A stretch of 64,000 nucleotides of DNA from an uncultured Piscirickettsiaceae bacterium (GTDB lineage Bacteria; Pseudomonadota; Gammaproteobacteria; Methylococcales; Cycloclasticaceae). The translations under genes were made by a program, and so were the position numbers. Location: positions 124,001 through 188,000 of the forward strand of contig CAJXSK010000001.1 of assembly GCA_913061075.1 (NCBI GenBank), given 5' to 3'. The notes under the pieces are model-generated. The model was not told where the DNA came from. It made no database searches and saw nothing but the letters and a program-made list of their open reading frames with translations. The stretch's first letter is position 1. Each line of letters starts with the position of its first letter. This document shows, in pieces, positions 46,146 to 54,409 of the stretch.

Positions 46146-47114
46146 ATGTTGCATACAAGCCTGAGATTAGTAACAGGATTAATGTTTCTAGGTTACGGAG
46201 CGTTCTTGTTTGCGTACGAAACAGAAACTGACATTGTAGAACCAAAACTTGAAGCTGCGAAGGTGTACCAGGTAGCTGATTATCGTAATTCCGGTGCTGA
46301 TGGGAGTACTTTATATATTAAAAACTCAAACTTTAGAGTTGTTGATAATATAGGCTTTTATATACCAGACTTGGTTGTAAAAGCTACGCCAAATGACAGT
46401 TCCCAACCTTTAGTATTTGATGACCCAACTTCATTTTCTCTTACACCTTTAAAAGGTAGTGTTGTTTTAGATAGCGCTAAACTTGAAGCATTATTAAATA
46501 AAAAAGTATTTGCATTTAAGGGCGCAACGTTAAGAAATATCAAGGTTAAAACAGCAACGAATGTATTAACATTAAGTGGTCAATTAATACGAAAAGGCCT
46601 GTGGGTTCCTTTTGAGCTTAAGGGTGATATTAAACTAGAAGATGGACATATTTTAAAATACCGTCCTTGGAAAGTGGTTACCGATGGTCAAGATGCAACA
46701 AAAGTTCTTAAAGTAGCAAACGTTGAAATTGACGAACTATTAACGGTTAGAGGACCTGGAGCTAATCTTATAGGTAGCACGGTTGTTCTTGATACATTAA
46801 AACTTTTCCCACCACCTACACTTAATTTAAACATCGCAACAGCCTCCATGGAAGATCGCGGTTTAGTGTTAACGTTTGATAATGGGAGTGGTTCAGACGC
46901 TTCTACATTAGCTGACAGTAATAGCTATATTTTAATTAAGGGCGGTGATGTTAAATTTATGAAGGCAGTGCCAACGAATGCTAGGGTGCAAGTTATGAGT
47001 GCCTCAGAAAATGCAGATCTTGATTTTTGTTTATATGATTATAGAGATCAGCTTTCAGCAGGGTATTTGAAAGTAAAAGAAGATGGCGCAATATTGGCCT
47101 ATTTGAAAAATTAA
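46146..47114 (+). CDS. Secreted protein of unknown family, paralogue A
   Basis: I do not recognise this family. The 322 residues begin with a hydrophobic export signal (about 1-23, LVTGLMFLGYGAFLFA). The mature protein looks all-beta: it has repeated valine/leucine-rich strands and no cysteine pairs. Segments shared with the next gene are R(N/D)SGAD, NIGFYI, VFDD, GSVVL, LFPPP, NSYI and LYDYR. The middle (LTLSGQLIRKGLWVPFELKG, near 138-157) loosely recalls lipid-binding DUF2993-type repeats; I rate that weak. It has a very strong AGGAGGAAGG ribosome-binding site, so high expression is likely. Confidence 0.8.
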   Translation: MLHTSLRLVTGLMFLGYGAFLFAYETETDIVEPKLEAAKVYQVADYRNSGADGSTLYIKNSNFRVVDNIGFYIPDLVVKATPNDSSQPLVFDDPTSFSLTPLKGSVVLDSAKLEALLNKKVFAFKGATLRNIKVKTATNVLTLSGQLIRKGLWVPFELKGDIKLEDGHILKYRPWKVVTDGQDATKVLKVANVEIDELLTVRGPGANLIGSTVVLDTLKLFPPPTLNLNIATASMEDRGLVLTFDNGSGSDASTLADSNSYILIKGGDVKFMKAVPTNARVQVMSASENADLDFCLYDYRDQLSAGYLKVKEDGAILAYLKN

Positions 47115-47146: not shown

Positions 47147-48442
47147 ATGCATTATAAAAAAATTATAAAAATTGCAATGGGCATGCTGTTAACTGTTGGA
47201 GTTTCAAGCAGTTTAATGGCTGATTCATTTATCAATAAGCAACAACAAGACCTTAAAAATGCTCGTGCACAATGGCAACAAAAAAACATACCATCAGGTA
47301 TGCAAGCGGGTGATTTGAGGGAGACAACTGAACGCGATTCTGGTGCTGATAATGTTTCAATGTACTTACAAAACGTTAATTTTGACGTAGTAGAAAATAT
47401 TGGTTTTTACATCGAAAAGTTAAAAGTAACGCTTGAACCTAAAGTGGCGGGTAATCCAGTTGTATTTGATGATGTTGAAAGCTTTACGATCAATGTTCAT
47501 AGTGGCTCGGTTGTTTTGAGTCCTCAAGTTATCACCGACTTATTCAATAATCATATTTTGGATTATTGGCCACGTCCTCTAGATGAGTTAACTATCACAA
47601 CAAAAGATGATTACTTAGAAGTTGAAGGAGATCTGAAACTTTGGAGTTGGTTTCCAGGTATTTGGTTACCTGCAGACCTAGGTGGTAAAATTGTTCTTAA
47701 TGGTGACAATAAGTTAGTCTACGAGATTGACGATGTGCGAGTTCTTGGTATTCCATTATACGGCTTATTAAGCGCTATCTTTATTGACCTTGACCTGTTG
47801 TTATCAATTGAAAGGGAAGGCGCTGAGTTAGTAGACAGTGTATTGGTGCTCGATCATACGTCAGTGTTTCCACCACCAGCACTTTCTGGCCGCATAGCTT
47901 CTGCTAGCTTAGATTCTGACGGTTTGCGTTTAGTGTTTGCTGATAATGATTCTGCTACATTCTCTAAACCTTCTGTGGCTGCAAATAGTTATATTTGGGC
48001 ACAGTCTGGTGATCCAAGGTTATTCGACATTGTTGTGAATAATGGCACTGTGCAAGTGCTTCCTGAAGATGCAAGCAAACCGCTTCGTTTTAATCTTTAT
48101 GATTATAGGAAACAAGTGGCTGCTGGAACGCTCAAGATGGCAAAAAATGGCGATATTATTGCAACTGTTCCCTCATCAGAAGGGCCAGATTATAGAGCAT
48201 CTGCTTCTTCATCTAACAGCTCATCTCCGGCGTCATCAGAACCAGATGCTGGGTGTGTGAACAGGGCTGGTTTTAATGTTTGCGAGGAGAAGGTAGTTAA
48301 AAAAATGACGCCAGTTAAAGCAGCTGTTGTTAAGGTTAAAGAAACTGTTGCTCCATTAACTACTGACGATAAAATTAGTCTTAAAACTGTTAAAGCAGGC
48401 ACATGTTTCAACCGTGCTGGTTTCGTAGTTGATTGTATGTAA
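47147..48442 (+). CDS. Secreted protein of unknown family, paralogue B, with repeated Cys motif
   Basis: The 431 residues start with a signal peptide (about 1-25, ending SSLMA) and contain the same beta-rich body as the gene 32 bases upstream, with the same landmark motifs. About 85 extra C-terminal residues form a Ser-rich linker (ASASSSNSSSPASS). Two near-identical cysteine motifs follow, CVNRAGFNVC and CFNRAGFVVDC, separated by a Lys/Val-rich stretch. The motifs could form disulphides or bind a ligand. Function is unknown. The pair ends with a strong terminator, so it is a two-gene operon. Confidence 0.8.
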   Translation: MHYKKIIKIAMGMLLTVGVSSSLMADSFINKQQQDLKNARAQWQQKNIPSGMQAGDLRETTERDSGADNVSMYLQNVNFDVVENIGFYIEKLKVTLEPKVAGNPVVFDDVESFTINVHSGSVVLSPQVITDLFNNHILDYWPRPLDELTITTKDDYLEVEGDLKLWSWFPGIWLPADLGGKIVLNGDNKLVYEIDDVRVLGIPLYGLLSAIFIDLDLLLSIEREGAELVDSVLVLDHTSVFPPPALSGRIASASLDSDGLRLVFADNDSATFSKPSVAANSYIWAQSGDPRLFDIVVNNGTVQVLPEDASKPLRFNLYDYRKQVAAGTLKMAKNGDIIATVPSSEGPDYRASASSSNSSSPASSEPDAGCVNRAGFNVCEEKVVKKMTPVKAAVVKVKETVAPLTTDDKISLKTVKAGTCFNRAGFVVDCM

Positions 48443-48520: not shown

Positions 48521-49432
48521 ATGGATGATATTTGGATGAGTAATTTTCAGTCAAAAAAGTTAACTATTGGCATTTCATCAATGGCATTATTTGATTTGGT
48601 AGAATCAAATAAGATATTTGAGACAGAAGGGAAAGAGGCGTATTGTGCCTATCAAATTTCGCGCGAAGATGAAGTGCTTAACCCAGGGGTTGCTTATCCC
48701 TTAGTAAAAAAATTACTGAAACTAAATCATCGCTTACCAACACCATTAGTTGAGGTTATTTTACTGTCTCGTAATAGTGCTGATACTGGGCTGAGAGTTT
48801 TTAACTCGATAAAAGAGCATGCGTTAGATATCACTAGGGCTGCATTTACGAGCGGCAACTCACCTTTTTCTTACATTTCAGCCTTTGATGTAGATCTTTT
48901 TTTATCGACCTCTCCAGGCGATGTACGCCAGGCATTAGATACTGGCCATGCAGCTGCAACTATTCTTTCTGGAAAAGCTAATGATAGCGAGAATAGCGAT
49001 CTGTGTATCGCTTTTGATGGTGATGCTGTCATCTTTTCGGACGAATCAGAACGTATTTATAAAGAGAAAGGTTTAGATGCATTTACAGAAAATGAGCAAT
49101 TAGATGCCAAAAAACCGATGTCTGGTGGACCATTCAAATCATTTTTGTCGGCACTTCATAATTTACAAAGCCATTTTAATGAGGAAGAATCACCTATCAG
49201 AACGGCGCTTGTAACTGCGCGTTCAGCACCAGCGCATGAACGCGTCGTAAGAACATTACGGTCTTGGGATATTCGAATTGATGAAGCATTGTTTTTGGGC
49301 GGTCTAGAAAAAGGTGTTTTTCTTAAATCTTTTGGTGCGGATATATTTTTTGATGACCAAACAACGCATTGTGATTCAGCTAATCAGCACGTAGCGACAG
49401 GGCATGTGCCACATGGTGTTGCAAACGAATAG
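48521..49432 (+). CDS. 5'-nucleotidase (cytosolic NT5C1-like family)
   Basis: Predicted to dephosphorylate nucleoside 5'-monophosphates, a HAD-like family shared with animal cytosolic 5'-nucleotidase I. The 303 residues include LTIGISSMALFDL (about 14-26) with the family start. CIAFDGDAVIFSDESE near 161-176 holds the DGDA segment. TALVTARSAPAHERVVRTL and FFDDQTTHCDSA are further conserved pieces. The start could also be the ATG at 48536 (MSNFQSKK); neither has a strong site. It ends one base from the convergent fimX-like gene. Confidence 0.85.
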   Translation: MDDIWMSNFQSKKLTIGISSMALFDLVESNKIFETEGKEAYCAYQISREDEVLNPGVAYPLVKKLLKLNHRLPTPLVEVILLSRNSADTGLRVFNSIKEHALDITRAAFTSGNSPFSYISAFDVDLFLSTSPGDVRQALDTGHAAATILSGKANDSENSDLCIAFDGDAVIFSDESERIYKEKGLDAFTENEQLDAKKPMSGGPFKSFLSALHNLQSHFNEEESPIRTALVTARSAPAHERVVRTLRSWDIRIDEALFLGGLEKGVFLKSFGADIFFDDQTTHCDSANQHVATGHVPHGVANE

Positions 49433-51514
49433 TTAGTCTTTAAGACTAAAATCAAAGACCATTTTGTCAGCAGGTTTTTGTAAAAAGTACCCCTGCACAG
49501 CATTGATGCCAATATTCCATAATATAGCAAGAACGTTTGCATTTTCTACAGACTTTGCAATTGTTTTAACATTGTTTCTTTTTGTTACTTTAACAAGCTT
49601 TTCAATCACTTTTTTTGACGCGGGATCGTTTAGTAAACTCTGAGTAAACGAACCGTCAATTTTTAGATAATCCACAGAGTACTCTTTTAATAACGCGTCG
49701 GTGATTTCAGTGAAACCCACTTGATCAAATGCTATTTGACAACCACATTCATCTTTAGCAATAGAAATAAACTCTTTTAACGTATCAGGATCATCTTTTA
49801 AATCAGAAAAATTAATTTGAAACACTAAAAGGCTTGGGTCGATACCATAAAACTTTACATCGGCTATTAAGGTTTCGATGAATTGATCATATTTATACGT
49901 ATTGATAGATAATGTTATGAAAAATTTACGCTTAACACCTTGCCGTGAAGCTTGCCTAATTTGTTGAATAGTATTACGTAGAACCCACTCGTCTAGCTGA
50001 GATATAAGACCGGTTTTTTCTGCTGTTAAGATAAAGCTATCAGGAGGGATGTGTTTGTTCTTTTCATCCATAATGCGTAGAAGTACGGCATAGTTTTCGG
50101 TGTTTTTTTCTGACAAATCTACGATAGGTTGAAAAAGTGTTTGTAAGCGGTTTTCCTCTAATGCACTTTGAATGAGATTTACACTCTGTTTTTCTTCAAT
50201 TAGTTCATTAATGGGTGTGCTTATTGAGTCATATACGTGAATTTTTTCACCTTCATTATTGGATGCTTTGTCACATGCCTTATCTGCTTGTGATATAAGG
50301 TGTTCTGCTGATGTAACTCTTTGATCTAGAAAGCTAATGCCGATACTTAGCGACGCTTTAATATAATCACTTTCTTCTCCAAAAATAGTATCATTTGTAA
50401 GAGTAATAATTTTTTGGCAATGTAGTAAAAAGTCCGAGCGGTCTAATTCCGATGAAAATAATGTAAAAATAGAATCACCGTATTTGGCTAGTACATCTCC
50501 TTGACCGCATGATTCTTTAATAATTGATGTTATTGAGTGTATTATTTTGTCTGTTTGCTGAAGTGTATACTTGTTCCTAATTTGACGAAAATCATTAATC
50601 AAAATCACTGCTAAAGAGCCCTGTGTAGACTCTTCTTGGACTTTGCTGTTGATATGTTCGATGATGAATTTTTTGTTATGTATGCCGCTTTCATGATCAA
50701 AGCTGCGCAAATCGGTAAAGCCTTTATCTATGTTGCTCCAAGCATCCGGGTTATGAACAAGTACTTGAGTGCACAAGCTATTGGCGACCAAGCATTTCGT
50801 TTTATAAATTGTTGTAACAAATGATTCGCCCCCTCTTTTTTGAATTAAAACAGAACTTGTTTTGTTGTCTGGCAACGATTCAAGTGATGTGTTTAAAGTA
50901 CTTTTTTTATCGGAATGATTCGTGGAAGAGCTTGATTCACTAAATTCTTTGACAGTGGTTTGGGTTAATTTTTCATCGTCGGGAATATTAAATATTCTTT
51001 TGTATGCATCGTTAACAGACCAATATTGATTATCATGAATAAGTGCAACACCATCCTCGGTGTTGTTTAAGAATGAGTCAAAACGAGAATGTTCGTTCTT
51101 GGCTTTAATTCTCGACACATGAAATAATGAACGATGGTGTTGGAAGTTAAGTTCTCTATGAATTGAGTTTGTAGTTAAGTGAATAGGGCTTAATGTTCGA
51201 ATATCAATTACTTTATTTCCAAAAGAATTAATATCGAATTTTTCTAAATCATCAGTAAAGATTATTTTGGGTACTTGTTGCAGCTCGGCTTTCAATTGTG
51301 AATGTTGCTGAATGCTTTTTGTTGTATGGTTATTGAAGTTTATTAAAACTAAATCAACTTTTTGTAATTTCTTTATATGTTTTATACAGTTTTTGAAATT
51401 TGTATATTGAACGACAACGTTAGGAAAGTTGAGTAAGCTCTTCGATAATAATGTTTGCTCATCCTTGCTTAAATTTATCACCAGAATGTTAGAACTTGTA
51501 CTAACAGCGTCCAT
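49433..51514 (-). CDS. fimX: FimX-like degenerate GGDEF/EAL c-di-GMP receptor
   Basis: The 693 residues match Pseudomonas FimX in length and layout. A receiver-like domain without phosphoacceptor signature spans about 8-110, and a PAS segment about 150-260. A GGDEF domain is changed to GDSIF (near 345-349). An EAL domain has VLLR where active enzymes have EALLR, and its metal-binding DDFGTG is replaced by DQVGFTE. Both activities should be lost while c-di-GMP binding may remain. FimX controls type IV pilus assembly and twitching. No pil genes are in view. The gene symbol rests on motif signature and synteny with the unknown gene, the EF-P genes and psd. Confidence 0.82.
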   Translation of the reverse strand: MDAVSTSSNILVINLSKDEQTLLSKSLLNFPNVVVQYTNFKNCIKHIKKLQKVDLVLINFNNHTTKSIQQHSQLKAELQQVPKIIFTDDLEKFDINSFGNKVIDIRTLSPIHLTTNSIHRELNFQHHRSLFHVSRIKAKNEHSRFDSFLNNTEDGVALIHDNQYWSVNDAYKRIFNIPDDEKLTQTTVKEFSESSSSTNHSDKKSTLNTSLESLPDNKTSSVLIQKRGGESFVTTIYKTKCLVANSLCTQVLVHNPDAWSNIDKGFTDLRSFDHESGIHNKKFIIEHINSKVQEESTQGSLAVILINDFRQIRNKYTLQQTDKIIHSITSIIKESCGQGDVLAKYGDSIFTLFSSELDRSDFLLHCQKIITLTNDTIFGEESDYIKASLSIGISFLDQRVTSAEHLISQADKACDKASNNEGEKIHVYDSISTPINELIEEKQSVNLIQSALEENRLQTLFQPIVDLSEKNTENYAVLLRIMDEKNKHIPPDSFILTAEKTGLISQLDEWVLRNTIQQIRQASRQGVKRKFFITLSINTYKYDQFIETLIADVKFYGIDPSLLVFQINFSDLKDDPDTLKEFISIAKDECGCQIAFDQVGFTEITDALLKEYSVDYLKIDGSFTQSLLNDPASKKVIEKLVKVTKRNNVKTIAKSVENANVLAILWNIGINAVQGYFLQKPADKMVFDFSLKD

Positions 51515-51547
51515 TTAGGTACCAGAAGTATTTTACGTAGGTTTACC

Positions 51548-53311
51548 TTAACCTTCTTTGATTGTTTTTTGAAGGGTATATCGTGTGAATACGGCATTTG
51601 TTTCAACTAACTTAGAAATGGTGTAGGTTTCTAGCTGGCTCTCAATTTTCAATTCTAAATTGATTCGGGTGTTTTCTAGCGGGGATATGCTAATAATTGC
51701 ATCGGGTTGGTTTAATTTTTCAACGCTAGGTAAAAATAGAACCTCTCTAGAGCGTATTGATTTATCAGTATTGCATATAACACCCAATTTGATATTGGGT
51801 GCTATTAGTTCAACGCCTAATGAAATTCCATCACCTTCAAGATTATCAAGGCGACGAATGATTGCAAGTTCAAGTTTTTTTTCCTTTATTGTCTCAATAC
51901 CGATTAAATCAGCTGCTTGTAGTAAAGATTTATTTTCTTGCGAAACTTTGAACCTGAATCCAGATGCACTAGAGTCTTTTTGAATAGCATCTAAATGATT
52001 CGCATTTCCGGTTTGTTTGGTGTTTTTATTTTTGCTCCATATATCCACTGACTTTATTGTTTTGTGATCTGTTTCTTTAATAACACGACCTATATCTTTC
52101 TCGCTTCTTAAAAAATTATTACCATGAGTGTTATTCGCAAAAGGGTTGTTTTCTATAGGTATGATTTCAACATTGGATAGGCCAAATGTACTCTGTTTTT
52201 TGCCTGTCGGTTTTCTACCAAGTGAAACAGACGGGGTATCATTGGGAAATAATTTTTTAATAATGTTTTTAAACCCAGGGTAAATAACGATTTCTTTTGA
52301 CTCGTCCGTGCGGGCAAATTGTCGATTGTGCGGTTTTTGCCAGCAGGGCAGTAGTTTTTGAATGACAGCACTGTTTAGTAATGTTTTATTTGCAGATTTA
52401 TCTAACGCCAGTGATGTGAAGTGTTGCGTTAATAATTCATTTTCAAAGAAAAGAATGTTTTCTTCGTGTTCTTGATAAGCGTTAATATTTGTAACTTCTA
52501 GATTTTTATACGGATTAATAAAAAAACTGGTGTGTTCGGTTTTTTCTTTAGTTAGTGAAACAGTTTGTGCTTGACTATTAATAATATCGTGAATCTTTAA
52601 AATATCTCTCTGACGAAATCTATTCAACAAAGCAAGGTGGGTATAATTTATTTTAATGAACTCGTTAGTAATGTTGGAGGATGCATGTTTATTTTCACTA
52701 TTTATTCCAGTTTCTATATTATCCAACGCGTAATTTTGAGCATGGCATAGCAACGCGTTGGTTTCATCCCAATTGCAAACCGCGCTTGTGCGATAAGTTA
52801 ATGAAGAGAAAAGTTGGATAAGACTCAAGAGGCTTAATATTCTATGAATGATAATCGCTTGTTGGTGTTGATTAAATATACGGTGTTCTTTCTGATTCAT
52901 ATGGGATGTTTCAGAAGAAAAGCTGTCCGATTTAATAATATCTACGTATACATCTATGAATGCATTCAAGACTGACAGTAGTTTTTCTACCAAATAGTTT
53001 GATTTATCTTCTAGAGGAAACTTAGCATCGATGACTTCTTTAATACATTCATCATAAAACACATATAAATTGGGAATGATCTTTTCTATTAATGTGAACC
53101 TGGTTTTATCGCTAAGTTTGTTTGTGAGAATGGCTGATGCTGCAATGTTAAAATTTTCACCGATAACAGTTACATTTAATATGGGAAGGTTTTGAAGCCA
53201 TTTGCTAATACCGTCATCCGTGGGAGAAAATGGTAAGACTTGCGTGTCGATTATACTCGTTGGGTTACGAAGTCGATCTTCTTGAGATTTTTGAAACGAT
53301 TTGTTTTCCAT
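51548..53311 (-). CDS. Hypothetical protein next to fimX, possible PilZ-like C-terminus
   Basis: Not recognised with certainty. From the ATG at 53311 it has 587 residues; an in-frame TTG two codons earlier is less likely. The first 300 residues are mostly helical with no signal peptide or membrane helix. The centre is polar and Lys/Asn-rich. The last 140 residues are beta-rich (ELAIIRRLDNLEGDGISLGVELI), loosely like a PilZ barrel, but lack the RxxxR c-di-GMP signature. It is 33 bases upstream of the fimX-like gene in one operon, so a cytoplasmic signalling or scaffold role with it is inferred. Confidence 0.7.
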   Translation of the reverse strand: MENKSFQKSQEDRLRNPTSIIDTQVLPFSPTDDGISKWLQNLPILNVTVIGENFNIAASAILTNKLSDKTRFTLIEKIIPNLYVFYDECIKEVIDAKFPLEDKSNYLVEKLLSVLNAFIDVYVDIIKSDSFSSETSHMNQKEHRIFNQHQQAIIIHRILSLLSLIQLFSSLTYRTSAVCNWDETNALLCHAQNYALDNIETGINSENKHASSNITNEFIKINYTHLALLNRFRQRDILKIHDIINSQAQTVSLTKEKTEHTSFFINPYKNLEVTNINAYQEHEENILFFENELLTQHFTSLALDKSANKTLLNSAVIQKLLPCWQKPHNRQFARTDESKEIVIYPGFKNIIKKLFPNDTPSVSLGRKPTGKKQSTFGLSNVEIIPIENNPFANNTHGNNFLRSEKDIGRVIKETDHKTIKSVDIWSKNKNTKQTGNANHLDAIQKDSSASGFRFKVSQENKSLLQAADLIGIETIKEKKLELAIIRRLDNLEGDGISLGVELIAPNIKLGVICNTDKSIRSREVLFLPSVEKLNQPDAIISISPLENTRINLELKIESQLETYTISKLVETNAVFTRYTLQKTIKEG

Positions 53312-53395: not shown

Positions 53396-54409
53396 TTAAG
53401 TTATTAGGGTTTTATTGGCTTCTCCTTGAACTTCAGTAACGAGTTTTGGAACAAGGTAACCAGGAAGTATTTGTTGTATTTTTTTGTAAATAACGAGCGC
53501 ATCCTTTTGTGCTATATCAAAATGTGCCGCGCCATCAACTTTGTCTAATAAATGAAGATAATAGGGCTGAATGTCATTATCGAACAGCTTGTAACTTAAG
53601 TCGATGAGCGTTTTTGGATTATCGTTAACCCCTTTTAGAAGTACTGTTTGGTTCAATAATGAAATTTTAGCTTTTTTTAACGTGTTTATCGCACGTTCCA
53701 CATCGTCAGATAACTCCTGGGGGTGATTAACGTGTAAAACAAAAATTGTTTTGAGAGACGTGTTCTTTATTATATCTATAAGTCTGTTTGTGACTCTATT
53801 GGGCAAGACAACGGGAAGTCGCGTGTGGATGCGTAAACGCTTAATGTGTTTGATGGATTGTAATGCTTCAATAACATTAGCTAATCGTTGATCACTGAGA
53901 GTGAGGGGGTCTCCACCACTTAATATGACTTCTTCAATTTCTTCGTGGTTTTTTAGATACGTTAATACTTTTTCAAAATGTGCTGGGGTTGAACTATTGT
54001 TAGTATAAGGAAATGCTCTTCTAAAACAATAGCGGCAATGAATGGCGCAAGCACCGGTTACAATTAGCAACACGCGGCCGTAATATTTATGAATCAGACC
54101 AGGTAATATGGTTGCTTTATCATCCCCCACAGGGTCTTGTGTAAATAACGTGTTTTTGTCTAATTCTGCGGGCAGTGGTAGAACTTGTTTTAATAATGGA
54201 TCAAGCGGATCATTTTTATTGATTTTTGAGGCAAAACTACGTGTCACTAATAATGGAAATAATTTGTTAGCTCTTTCATGTTCTTCTAAATCATTAATAT
54301 CTAGGTTTAGATAGGCTAACAATTTATCTAACTGCGTAAATGCGCCACTGAGTTCTTGTTGCCAAGTTTGGGAGTTAGAAATTTTTACAACGCTGTCCAT
54401 CCGAAGCAT
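53396..54409 (-). CDS. epmB: EF-P lysine 2,3-aminomutase EpmB
   Basis: Radical SAM enzyme that turns alpha-lysine into beta-lysine for EF-P modification. The 337 residues fit EpmB rather than the longer KamA enzymes. The iron-sulphur motif CAIHCRYCFRR is near 119-129. LSGGDPLTL (SAM binding) is near 163-171, and a lysine/PLP-binding region (LLDKVDGAAHF) is in the last quarter. Divergent from efp with 59 bases between, the standard arrangement. Confidence 0.94.
   Translation of the reverse strand: MLRMDSVVKISNSQTWQQELSGAFTQLDKLLAYLNLDINDLEEHERANKLFPLLVTRSFASKINKNDPLDPLLKQVLPLPAELDKNTLFTQDPVGDDKATILPGLIHKYYGRVLLIVTGACAIHCRYCFRRAFPYTNNSSTPAHFEKVLTYLKNHEEIEEVILSGGDPLTLSDQRLANVIEALQSIKHIKRLRIHTRLPVVLPNRVTNRLIDIIKNTSLKTIFVLHVNHPQELSDDVERAINTLKKAKISLLNQTVLLKGVNDNPKTLIDLSYKLFDNDIQPYYLHLLDKVDGAAHFDIAQKDALVIYKKIQQILPGYLVPKLVTEVQGEANKTLIT

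What the first reader, a model, noticed from the sequence alone, without database searches (positions are those of the whole stretch)
49433..53311. FimX-like receptor in an operon with an unknown 587-residue protein
GDSIF in place of GGDEF, a VLLR signature without the catalytic glutamate, and loss of the EAL metal-binding acids all match FimX. The upstream gene is separated by only 33 bases, is cytoplasmic, and ends in a PilZ-like but signature-less beta domain. It may be an undescribed partner passing the c-di-GMP state to pili or to another machine.
Basis: partly seen in the sequence, partly recalled or inferred. Interest (0 to 1): 0.6.

Follow-up and report, generated by a model that had tools for sequence, protein, structure and literature searches.

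The report
FimW–FimX pilus regulator gene pair
The two neighbouring genes encode FimX and FimW, a known pair of c-di-GMP-sensing regulators of type IV pili, here in a small-genome relative of Pseudomonas; the supposedly unknown partner is an already described kind of protein whose signal-binding motif was overlooked because a long floppy insert splits it.

Summary
Window 49433-51514(-) encodes a degenerate REC-PAS-GGDEF-EAL protein whose best solved match is Pseudomonas aeruginosa FimX. The "unknown" 587-residue protein at 51548-53311(-) belongs to the FimW family: a profile of its same-genus relatives picks out one ORF, directly upstream of fimX, in 80 of 80 Pseudomonas-type fimX loci. Papers name that gene fimW, a c-di-GMP-binding regulator of pilus extension in a fimW-fimX operon. 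So the partner is described. Nor is it signature-less: RxxxR (330-334) and [D/N]xSxxG (446-451) occur together in 47 of 49 aligned homologues, but 96-115 residues apart. The predicted fold is a PilZ barrel (328-507) interrupted by a disordered insert. The genome has PilB, two PilT-family motors and PilZ proteins. FimW and FimX are present or missing together in 18 of 18 genomes of the genus. Ordinary as a find. The split PilZ, which Pfam misses, and the many FimW-like proteins away from fimX are modestly interesting. Binding and FimW-FimX contact were not tested.

The parts
51548..53311 (-). fimW, 587 aa: helical N-terminal domain (about 32-327), split PilZ domain (328-507, disordered insert about 361-434), extra C-terminal beta part (522-582)
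   Evidence: Profile of same-genus proteins hits the ORF just upstream of fimX in 80 of 80 Pseudomonas-type loci; AlphaFold2 model pLDDT 83.2, pTM 0.82; PilZ structures up to Z 10.9 and 11.4
52310..52324 (-). RxxxR half of the PilZ signature (fimW residues 330-334, RQFAR)
   Evidence: Columns 330 and 334 are R in 104 and 103 of 105 rows, invariant in 49 rows
51959..51976 (-). [D/N]xSxxG half of the PilZ signature (fimW residues 446-451, DSSASG)
   Evidence: S448 in 101, G451 in 104 of 105 rows; both halves together in 47 of 49 rows, 96-115 residues apart
49433..51514 (-). fimX, 693 aa: degenerate REC-like N terminus, PAS-like (144-210), degenerate GGDEF (GDSIF), degenerate EAL (YAVLLR)
   Evidence: Best solved match P. 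aeruginosa FimX 4j40, E 1.9e-55 over 267-691; Pfam EAL and GGDEF; residue map
53396..54409 (-). radical-SAM gene (called epmB here from recall), 84 bp upstream of fimW on the same strand; boundary of the cassette
   Evidence: PF04055; next to fimW in same-genus loci with enough sequence and in G029; abuts the 5'-nucleotidase gene where fimWX is absent (L152 and L153)
48521..49432 (+). 5'-nucleotidase family gene, convergent, abuts the fimX stop; other boundary of the cassette
   Evidence: PF06189 E 5.2e-134; same boundary in L049, L050, L051

Best explanation
This is a fimW-fimX operon, probably cotranscribed with the upstream radical-SAM (epmB-like) gene. FimW is a cytoplasmic c-di-GMP receptor. 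Its PilZ barrel is interrupted between strand 1 (which follows RxxxR) and strand 2 (which leads into DxSxxG) by a roughly 100-residue insert that is mostly disordered in the model; the two halves come together to form one binding pocket. When c-di-GMP rises, FimW binds it and, by analogy with P. aeruginosa, dimerises and moves to the pole to promote pilus assembly. FimX is a catalytically dead receptor that, by analogy, licenses PilB-driven extension. Shown here: gene identity, operon-like layout, both signature halves, PilZ fold in the model, presence of pilus motors, joint presence and loss. Inferred from papers: polar recruitment, dimerisation, action on PilB. Not shown in anything I read: direct FimW-FimX contact.
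For: FimX. FimW family: 80 of 80 loci, E 5.5e-23 to 7e-8, one hit per locus among 1930 ORFs; same strand, stop-to-start gap 56-210 bp, median 63, in the 78 loci whose fimX start was recognised. psd lies just before fimW in 5 of 5 Pseudomonas loci checked and is also in the window's neighbourhood. Papers: fimWfimX operon (PMC7314104); FimW is a c-di-GMP-binding extension regulator encoded with FimX (PMC11656802); dimerises and goes to poles on surface contact (PMC10212136); listed as a PilZ effector (PMC12564702). Signature. Fold. Adjacent in 12 of 12 same-genus genomes where an intact pair can be judged; same presence/absence in 18 of 18. Motors: PilB and two PilT-family proteins. Decay with the pili: G007 keeps only a fimW-5'/fimX-3' remnant and has no PilB or PilT-family hit.
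Against: G015 (99% complete) has PilB and two PilT-family motors but neither fimW nor fimX, so the pair is not essential to the pilus there. Foldseek gave no match at E <= 0.001; the PilZ call rests on VIA-align 2, motifs and sub-threshold Pfam hits. Sequence identity to the Pseudomonas rows is only about 14-17%. The tree puts the window's protein on the side of the unlinked homologues, and Pseudomonas FimW with long-branched short paralogues, so strict orthology is not proven. Glu475 of FimX is Ala here, and changing all three EVL residues abolishes c-di-GMP binding in P. aeruginosa (PMC5595344), so binding by this FimX is uncertain. P. aeruginosa PA14 lacking fimW twitched like wild type in one study (PMC12288467), while a review calls fimW required for optimal twitching.
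Confidence: 0.9

Rival explanations
1. The protein is a distant paralogue of FimW, not its orthologue: one of several FimW-like effectors, recruited next to fimX separately in this lineage and in Pseudomonas.
For: In one search the fimX-linked rows need two changes on the tree (0% of bootstrap trees with one); FimW-like proteins not next to fimX are common and sometimes several per genome.
Against: Same order, fimW then fimX on one strand, with psd nearby in both lineages, and in G029 of a third family; loss of the link in other families explains the tree as well; the tree is unrooted with long branches.
Confidence: 0.2
2. FimW is a direct partner of FimX: the two form a complex that reads c-di-GMP at two affinities and hands the state to PilB. 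(This adds to the best explanation rather than replacing it.)
For: Tight operon and joint presence/absence in 18 of 18 genomes; joint remnant in G007.
Against: No contact was tested here; PMC11656802 states no evidence of functional interaction; many FimW-like proteins have no FimX nearby.
Confidence: 0.3
3. One reading: an undescribed, signature-less partner protein.
For: Pfam has no family for it at E <= 1 and NCBIfam only a chance match far below its cut-off.
Against: 80 of 80 Pseudomonas-type fimX loci carry a homologue in the fimW position; both signature halves are conserved.
Confidence: 0.02

Closest known systems
FimW of Pseudomonas aeruginosa (locus number PA4958 is from recall)
   Same: Encoded just upstream of fimX; about 600 aa; RxxxR followed by [D/N]xSxxG at wide spacing in 80 of 80 Pseudomonas-type homologues (regex)
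   Different: About 14-17% identity to the Pseudomonas rows; no P. aeruginosa locus was among the 80 fetched; function untested here
FimX of Pseudomonas aeruginosa
   Same: Degenerate REC-PAS-GGDEF-EAL, GDSIF; residues aligned with Q461, L477, R479 and D507 kept
   Different: Glu475 is Ala, F604 is D and F652 is S in the alignment; about 24-25% identity to five Pseudomonas rows
PilZ-domain c-di-GMP receptors (VCA0042, PP4397, Alg44, YcgR)
   Same: Barrel aligns at Z 8.8-11.4 over 80-92 residues; both signature halves present
   Different: 96-115 residues between the two motif halves, against about 18-27 in the five own-genome PilZ proteins that carry both (read); large helical N-terminal domain

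Membership tests
FimX | Closest solved relative is FimX over GGDEF-EAL | tested here: met
   4j40 E 1.9e-55, next non-FimX chain 1.4e-35
FimX | Degenerate GGDEF and EAL catalytic motifs | tested here: met
   GDSIF and YAVLLR; the Ala itself is not in Pseudomonas FimX
FimX | Binds c-di-GMP through the EAL domain and acts on PilB | not testable with these tools
   Known for P. aeruginosa (PMC5595344, passages)
FimW | Gene directly upstream of fimX, same strand | tested here: met
FimW | Homology to the Pseudomonas protein in that position | tested here: met
   80 of 80 loci; 49-row alignment with 9 invariant columns
FimW | One clade with Pseudomonas FimW | tested here: inconclusive
   Unrooted tree, two changes, long branches
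FimW | c-di-GMP binding, polar recruitment, role in piliation | not testable with these tools
   Published for P. aeruginosa (passages)
PilZ domain | RxxxR and [D/N]xSxxG | tested here: met
   47 of 49 rows have both
PilZ domain | PilZ barrel fold | tested here: met
   C-terminal model: 24 of the 25 best rows are entries with a PilZ domain (partly by recall of what the entries hold), Z 8.4-11.4
PilZ domain | Pfam PF07238 over its curated cut-off | tested here: not met
   No hit for the window protein; 2 of 10 and 3 of 10 homologues sub-threshold, E 0.0089-0.21
PilZ domain | Motif halves about 20-30 residues apart | tested here: not met
   96-115 residues; hence described as a split variant

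The most novel reading that the evidence does not exclude
FimW is one branch of a large, mostly unrecognised class of c-di-GMP effectors with a helical platform and a PilZ domain split by a long disordered insert. Profile libraries miss it. Most members sit away from fimX, some genomes hold several, and one sub-group has lost the binding signature, so the class may steer machines other than type IV pili. The insert could act as a tether that captures a partner when c-di-GMP closes the barrel.
Probability: 0.35. Interest if true: 0.45.

Novelty: new member of a known kind. Interest (0 to 1): 0.22.

Why it matters
It extends the FimW-FimX pair to a small-genome lineage, gives an independent set of homologues, and names the residues (R330, R334, D446, S448, G451) that should bind c-di-GMP in FimW, whose mode of action is still called unknown in papers. 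A genome that has PilB and PilT-family motors but neither gene (G015) is a natural test of what the pair adds.

Tried and rejected
Rejected: an undescribed partner; a signature-less beta domain; an active enzyme (degenerate GGDEF and EAL motifs). A viral-contig scan with FimW found no relative. A search of solved structures with FimW gave only chance matches. Foldseek alone gave nothing at E <= 0.001. VIA-align 2 rows for the helical N-terminal domain (14-3-3, designed bundles, Z up to 10.5) are within what helical bundles give by chance, so no function is read from them. No fold is claimed for residues 508-587. The FimX search at E <= 1e-60 in 26 chosen genomes is too strict to prove absence of FimX outside the genus; absence there is claimed only for the neighbourhood. 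Literature: 'FimX'+'PA4958' gave 0 papers, 'PA4958' 1, 'FimW'+'FimX' 8, 'FimW'+'c-di-GMP' 28, several of them on an unrelated Salmonella FimW, 'FimW'+'PilZ domain' 8. I read only FimW passages in a subset of these. None seen described the split, but the original FimW paper (Laventie et al. 2019, seen only as a reference) was not read, so I do not claim the split is unpublished.

Full report
What was checked. fimX lies at 49433-51514(-), 693 aa; the upstream gene at 51548-53311(-), 587 aa; 33 bp lie between. A radical-SAM gene on the same strand (53396-54409) ends 84 bp before the upstream gene, and a 5'-nucleotidase gene (48521-49432, +) meets the fimX stop tail to tail. The names epmB, efp, epmA and psd are my labels from recall of these families; only the radical-SAM and 5'-nucleotidase families were confirmed by profile.

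FimX. Pfam gives EAL (E 9.5e-53), GGDEF (1.4e-17) and weak PAS. The best solved relative is P. aeruginosa FimX 4j40 (E 1.9e-55), ahead of the next non-FimX protein (1.4e-35). The GGDEF site is GDSIF, as in 4j40. On P. aeruginosa numbering, which I anchored on Gln461 and Glu475 as printed in PMC3527489 (passage), the window keeps Q461, L477, R479 and D507 but has Ala for Glu475. The three relatives aligned (G008, G014, G029) also have Ala; the seven Pseudomonas-type sequences have Glu. Changing EVL to AAA stops c-di-GMP binding in P. aeruginosa (PMC5595344, passages), so whether this FimX binds the signal is open.

The partner is FimW-family. I took the P. aeruginosa FimX fragment printed and scanned the species collection; the tool kept the best 80 of 124 confirmed loci, nearly all titled Pseudomonas or Pseudomonadaceae. 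P. aeruginosa itself was not among them. A profile built from 13 same-genus versions of the window's protein was run over all 1930 ORFs of at least 150 aa in these loci. It hit 80 ORFs, one in each of 80 loci, E 5.5e-23 to 7e-8. All are on the fimX strand; the stop-to-start gap is 56-210 bp, median 63, in the 78 loci whose start was recognised. One of the 80 (L053) is a shorter frame of 433 aa. Papers name this gene: a fimWfimX operon (PMC7314104, passage); [quoted passage not shown] dimerisation and polar recruitment after surface contact (PMC10212136, passage); a PilZ-domain effector (PMC12564702, passages). One study found PA14 fimW mutants twitching like wild type (PMC12288467, passage).

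The signature is there, but split. In an alignment of 105 FimW-type rows, R330 is R in 104, R334 in 103, S448 in 101 and G451 in 104. In a 49-row alignment the invariant columns include R330, R334, G346, G451, R486 and G499. Both halves occur together in 47 of 49 rows, with 96-115 residues between them. In the five own-genome PilZ proteins that carry both halves the distance is about 18-27 residues (read). The AlphaFold2 model (pLDDT 83.2, pTM 0.82) has a helical N-terminal domain, a strand right after RxxxR (335-345), stretches of low confidence (361-403 and 414-434), then the rest of the barrel. VIA-align 2 aligns 329-507 with c-di-GMP-bound VCA0042 (3kyg, Z 10.9, 87 residues, 2.0 A) and similarly with PA0012 and Alg44. 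A model of residues 322-587 alone gives entries with a PilZ domain in 24 of the best 25 rows, Z 8.4-11.4; the exception is a phage neck protein. Foldseek by itself reached no E <= 0.001, and Pfam PilZ stays below its cut-off in all FimW-type proteins scanned.

Pili and co-occurrence. The genome has a PilB over the curated cut-off, two PilT-family motors, eight PilZ-domain proteins including a 118-aa one without the signature, and an MshE-like ATPase with an MshEN domain. Across 18 genomes of the genus, FimW and FimX are both found in 15 and both missing in 3 (G002, G015, G016). The pair is adjacent in 12 of 12 genomes where it can be judged; G003 and G013 are cut by contig ends, and G007 holds only a remnant with stops. 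PilB is over the cut-off in 15 of 18; the three others are G003 (80% complete), G007 and G016. G007 has no PilT-family hit and G016 only a short broken one. Against a simple story, G015 (99% complete) has the motors but not the pair, and there the radical-SAM gene abuts the 5'-nucleotidase gene.

Wider family. In an even sample of 201 genomes of the order, 132 have a match to the FimW profile, but many match only the N-terminal domain, as does a second protein in the window's own genome. Of the matches whose neighbourhoods I fetched outside Pseudomonas and the genus, only G029 has FimX next door; G027 has a GGDEF-EAL-like protein about 6 kb away. A tree of 34 rows needs two changes for the fimX link and does not settle whether the link is old and lost or was made twice.

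Mechanism. Most likely FimW binds c-di-GMP in a pocket made by the two separated motif halves, and together with a catalytically dead FimX promotes PilB-driven pilus extension at the pole. Identity, layout, motif, predicted fold and co-occurrence are shown here; binding, dimerisation, localisation and action on PilB are taken from work on P. aeruginosa; direct FimW-FimX contact is a guess.

Verdict. A real and conserved gene pair, but a known kind.

Noticed in passing
L140:3611-5131 (-) (G000 contig 6, about 54.1-55.6 kb): A second protein in the same genome shares the helical N-terminal domain of FimW (profile positions 8-326) but lacks the PilZ signature; similar short forms are common in the order.
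   Followed up: partly
L133:913-2670 (+) (G000 contig 4): MshE-like pilus ATPase with an MshEN c-di-GMP-binding domain, so the genome probably has a second c-di-GMP-controlled pilus or secretion motor.
   Followed up: no
window 46146-47114 and 47147-48442 (+): Two adjacent genes are about 36% alike (cross-hits), have no Pfam family and stay next to the 5'-nucleotidase gene in G015 and G002.
   Followed up: no
L049:4069-4915 (G007): Remnant in which the start of fimW is followed directly by the end of fimX with stops, in a genome without PilB or PilT-family hits.
   Followed up: partly
L151:3445-7011 (G133); L047, L141 and L142 (G041): Several FimW-like full-length proteins per genome, none next to fimX; in L151 two lie in tandem.
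   Followed up: partly
L152:5434-5455 (G015): Clean absence of fimW-fimX: the two flanking genes abut, in a genome that keeps PilB and PilT-family motors.
   Followed up: partly
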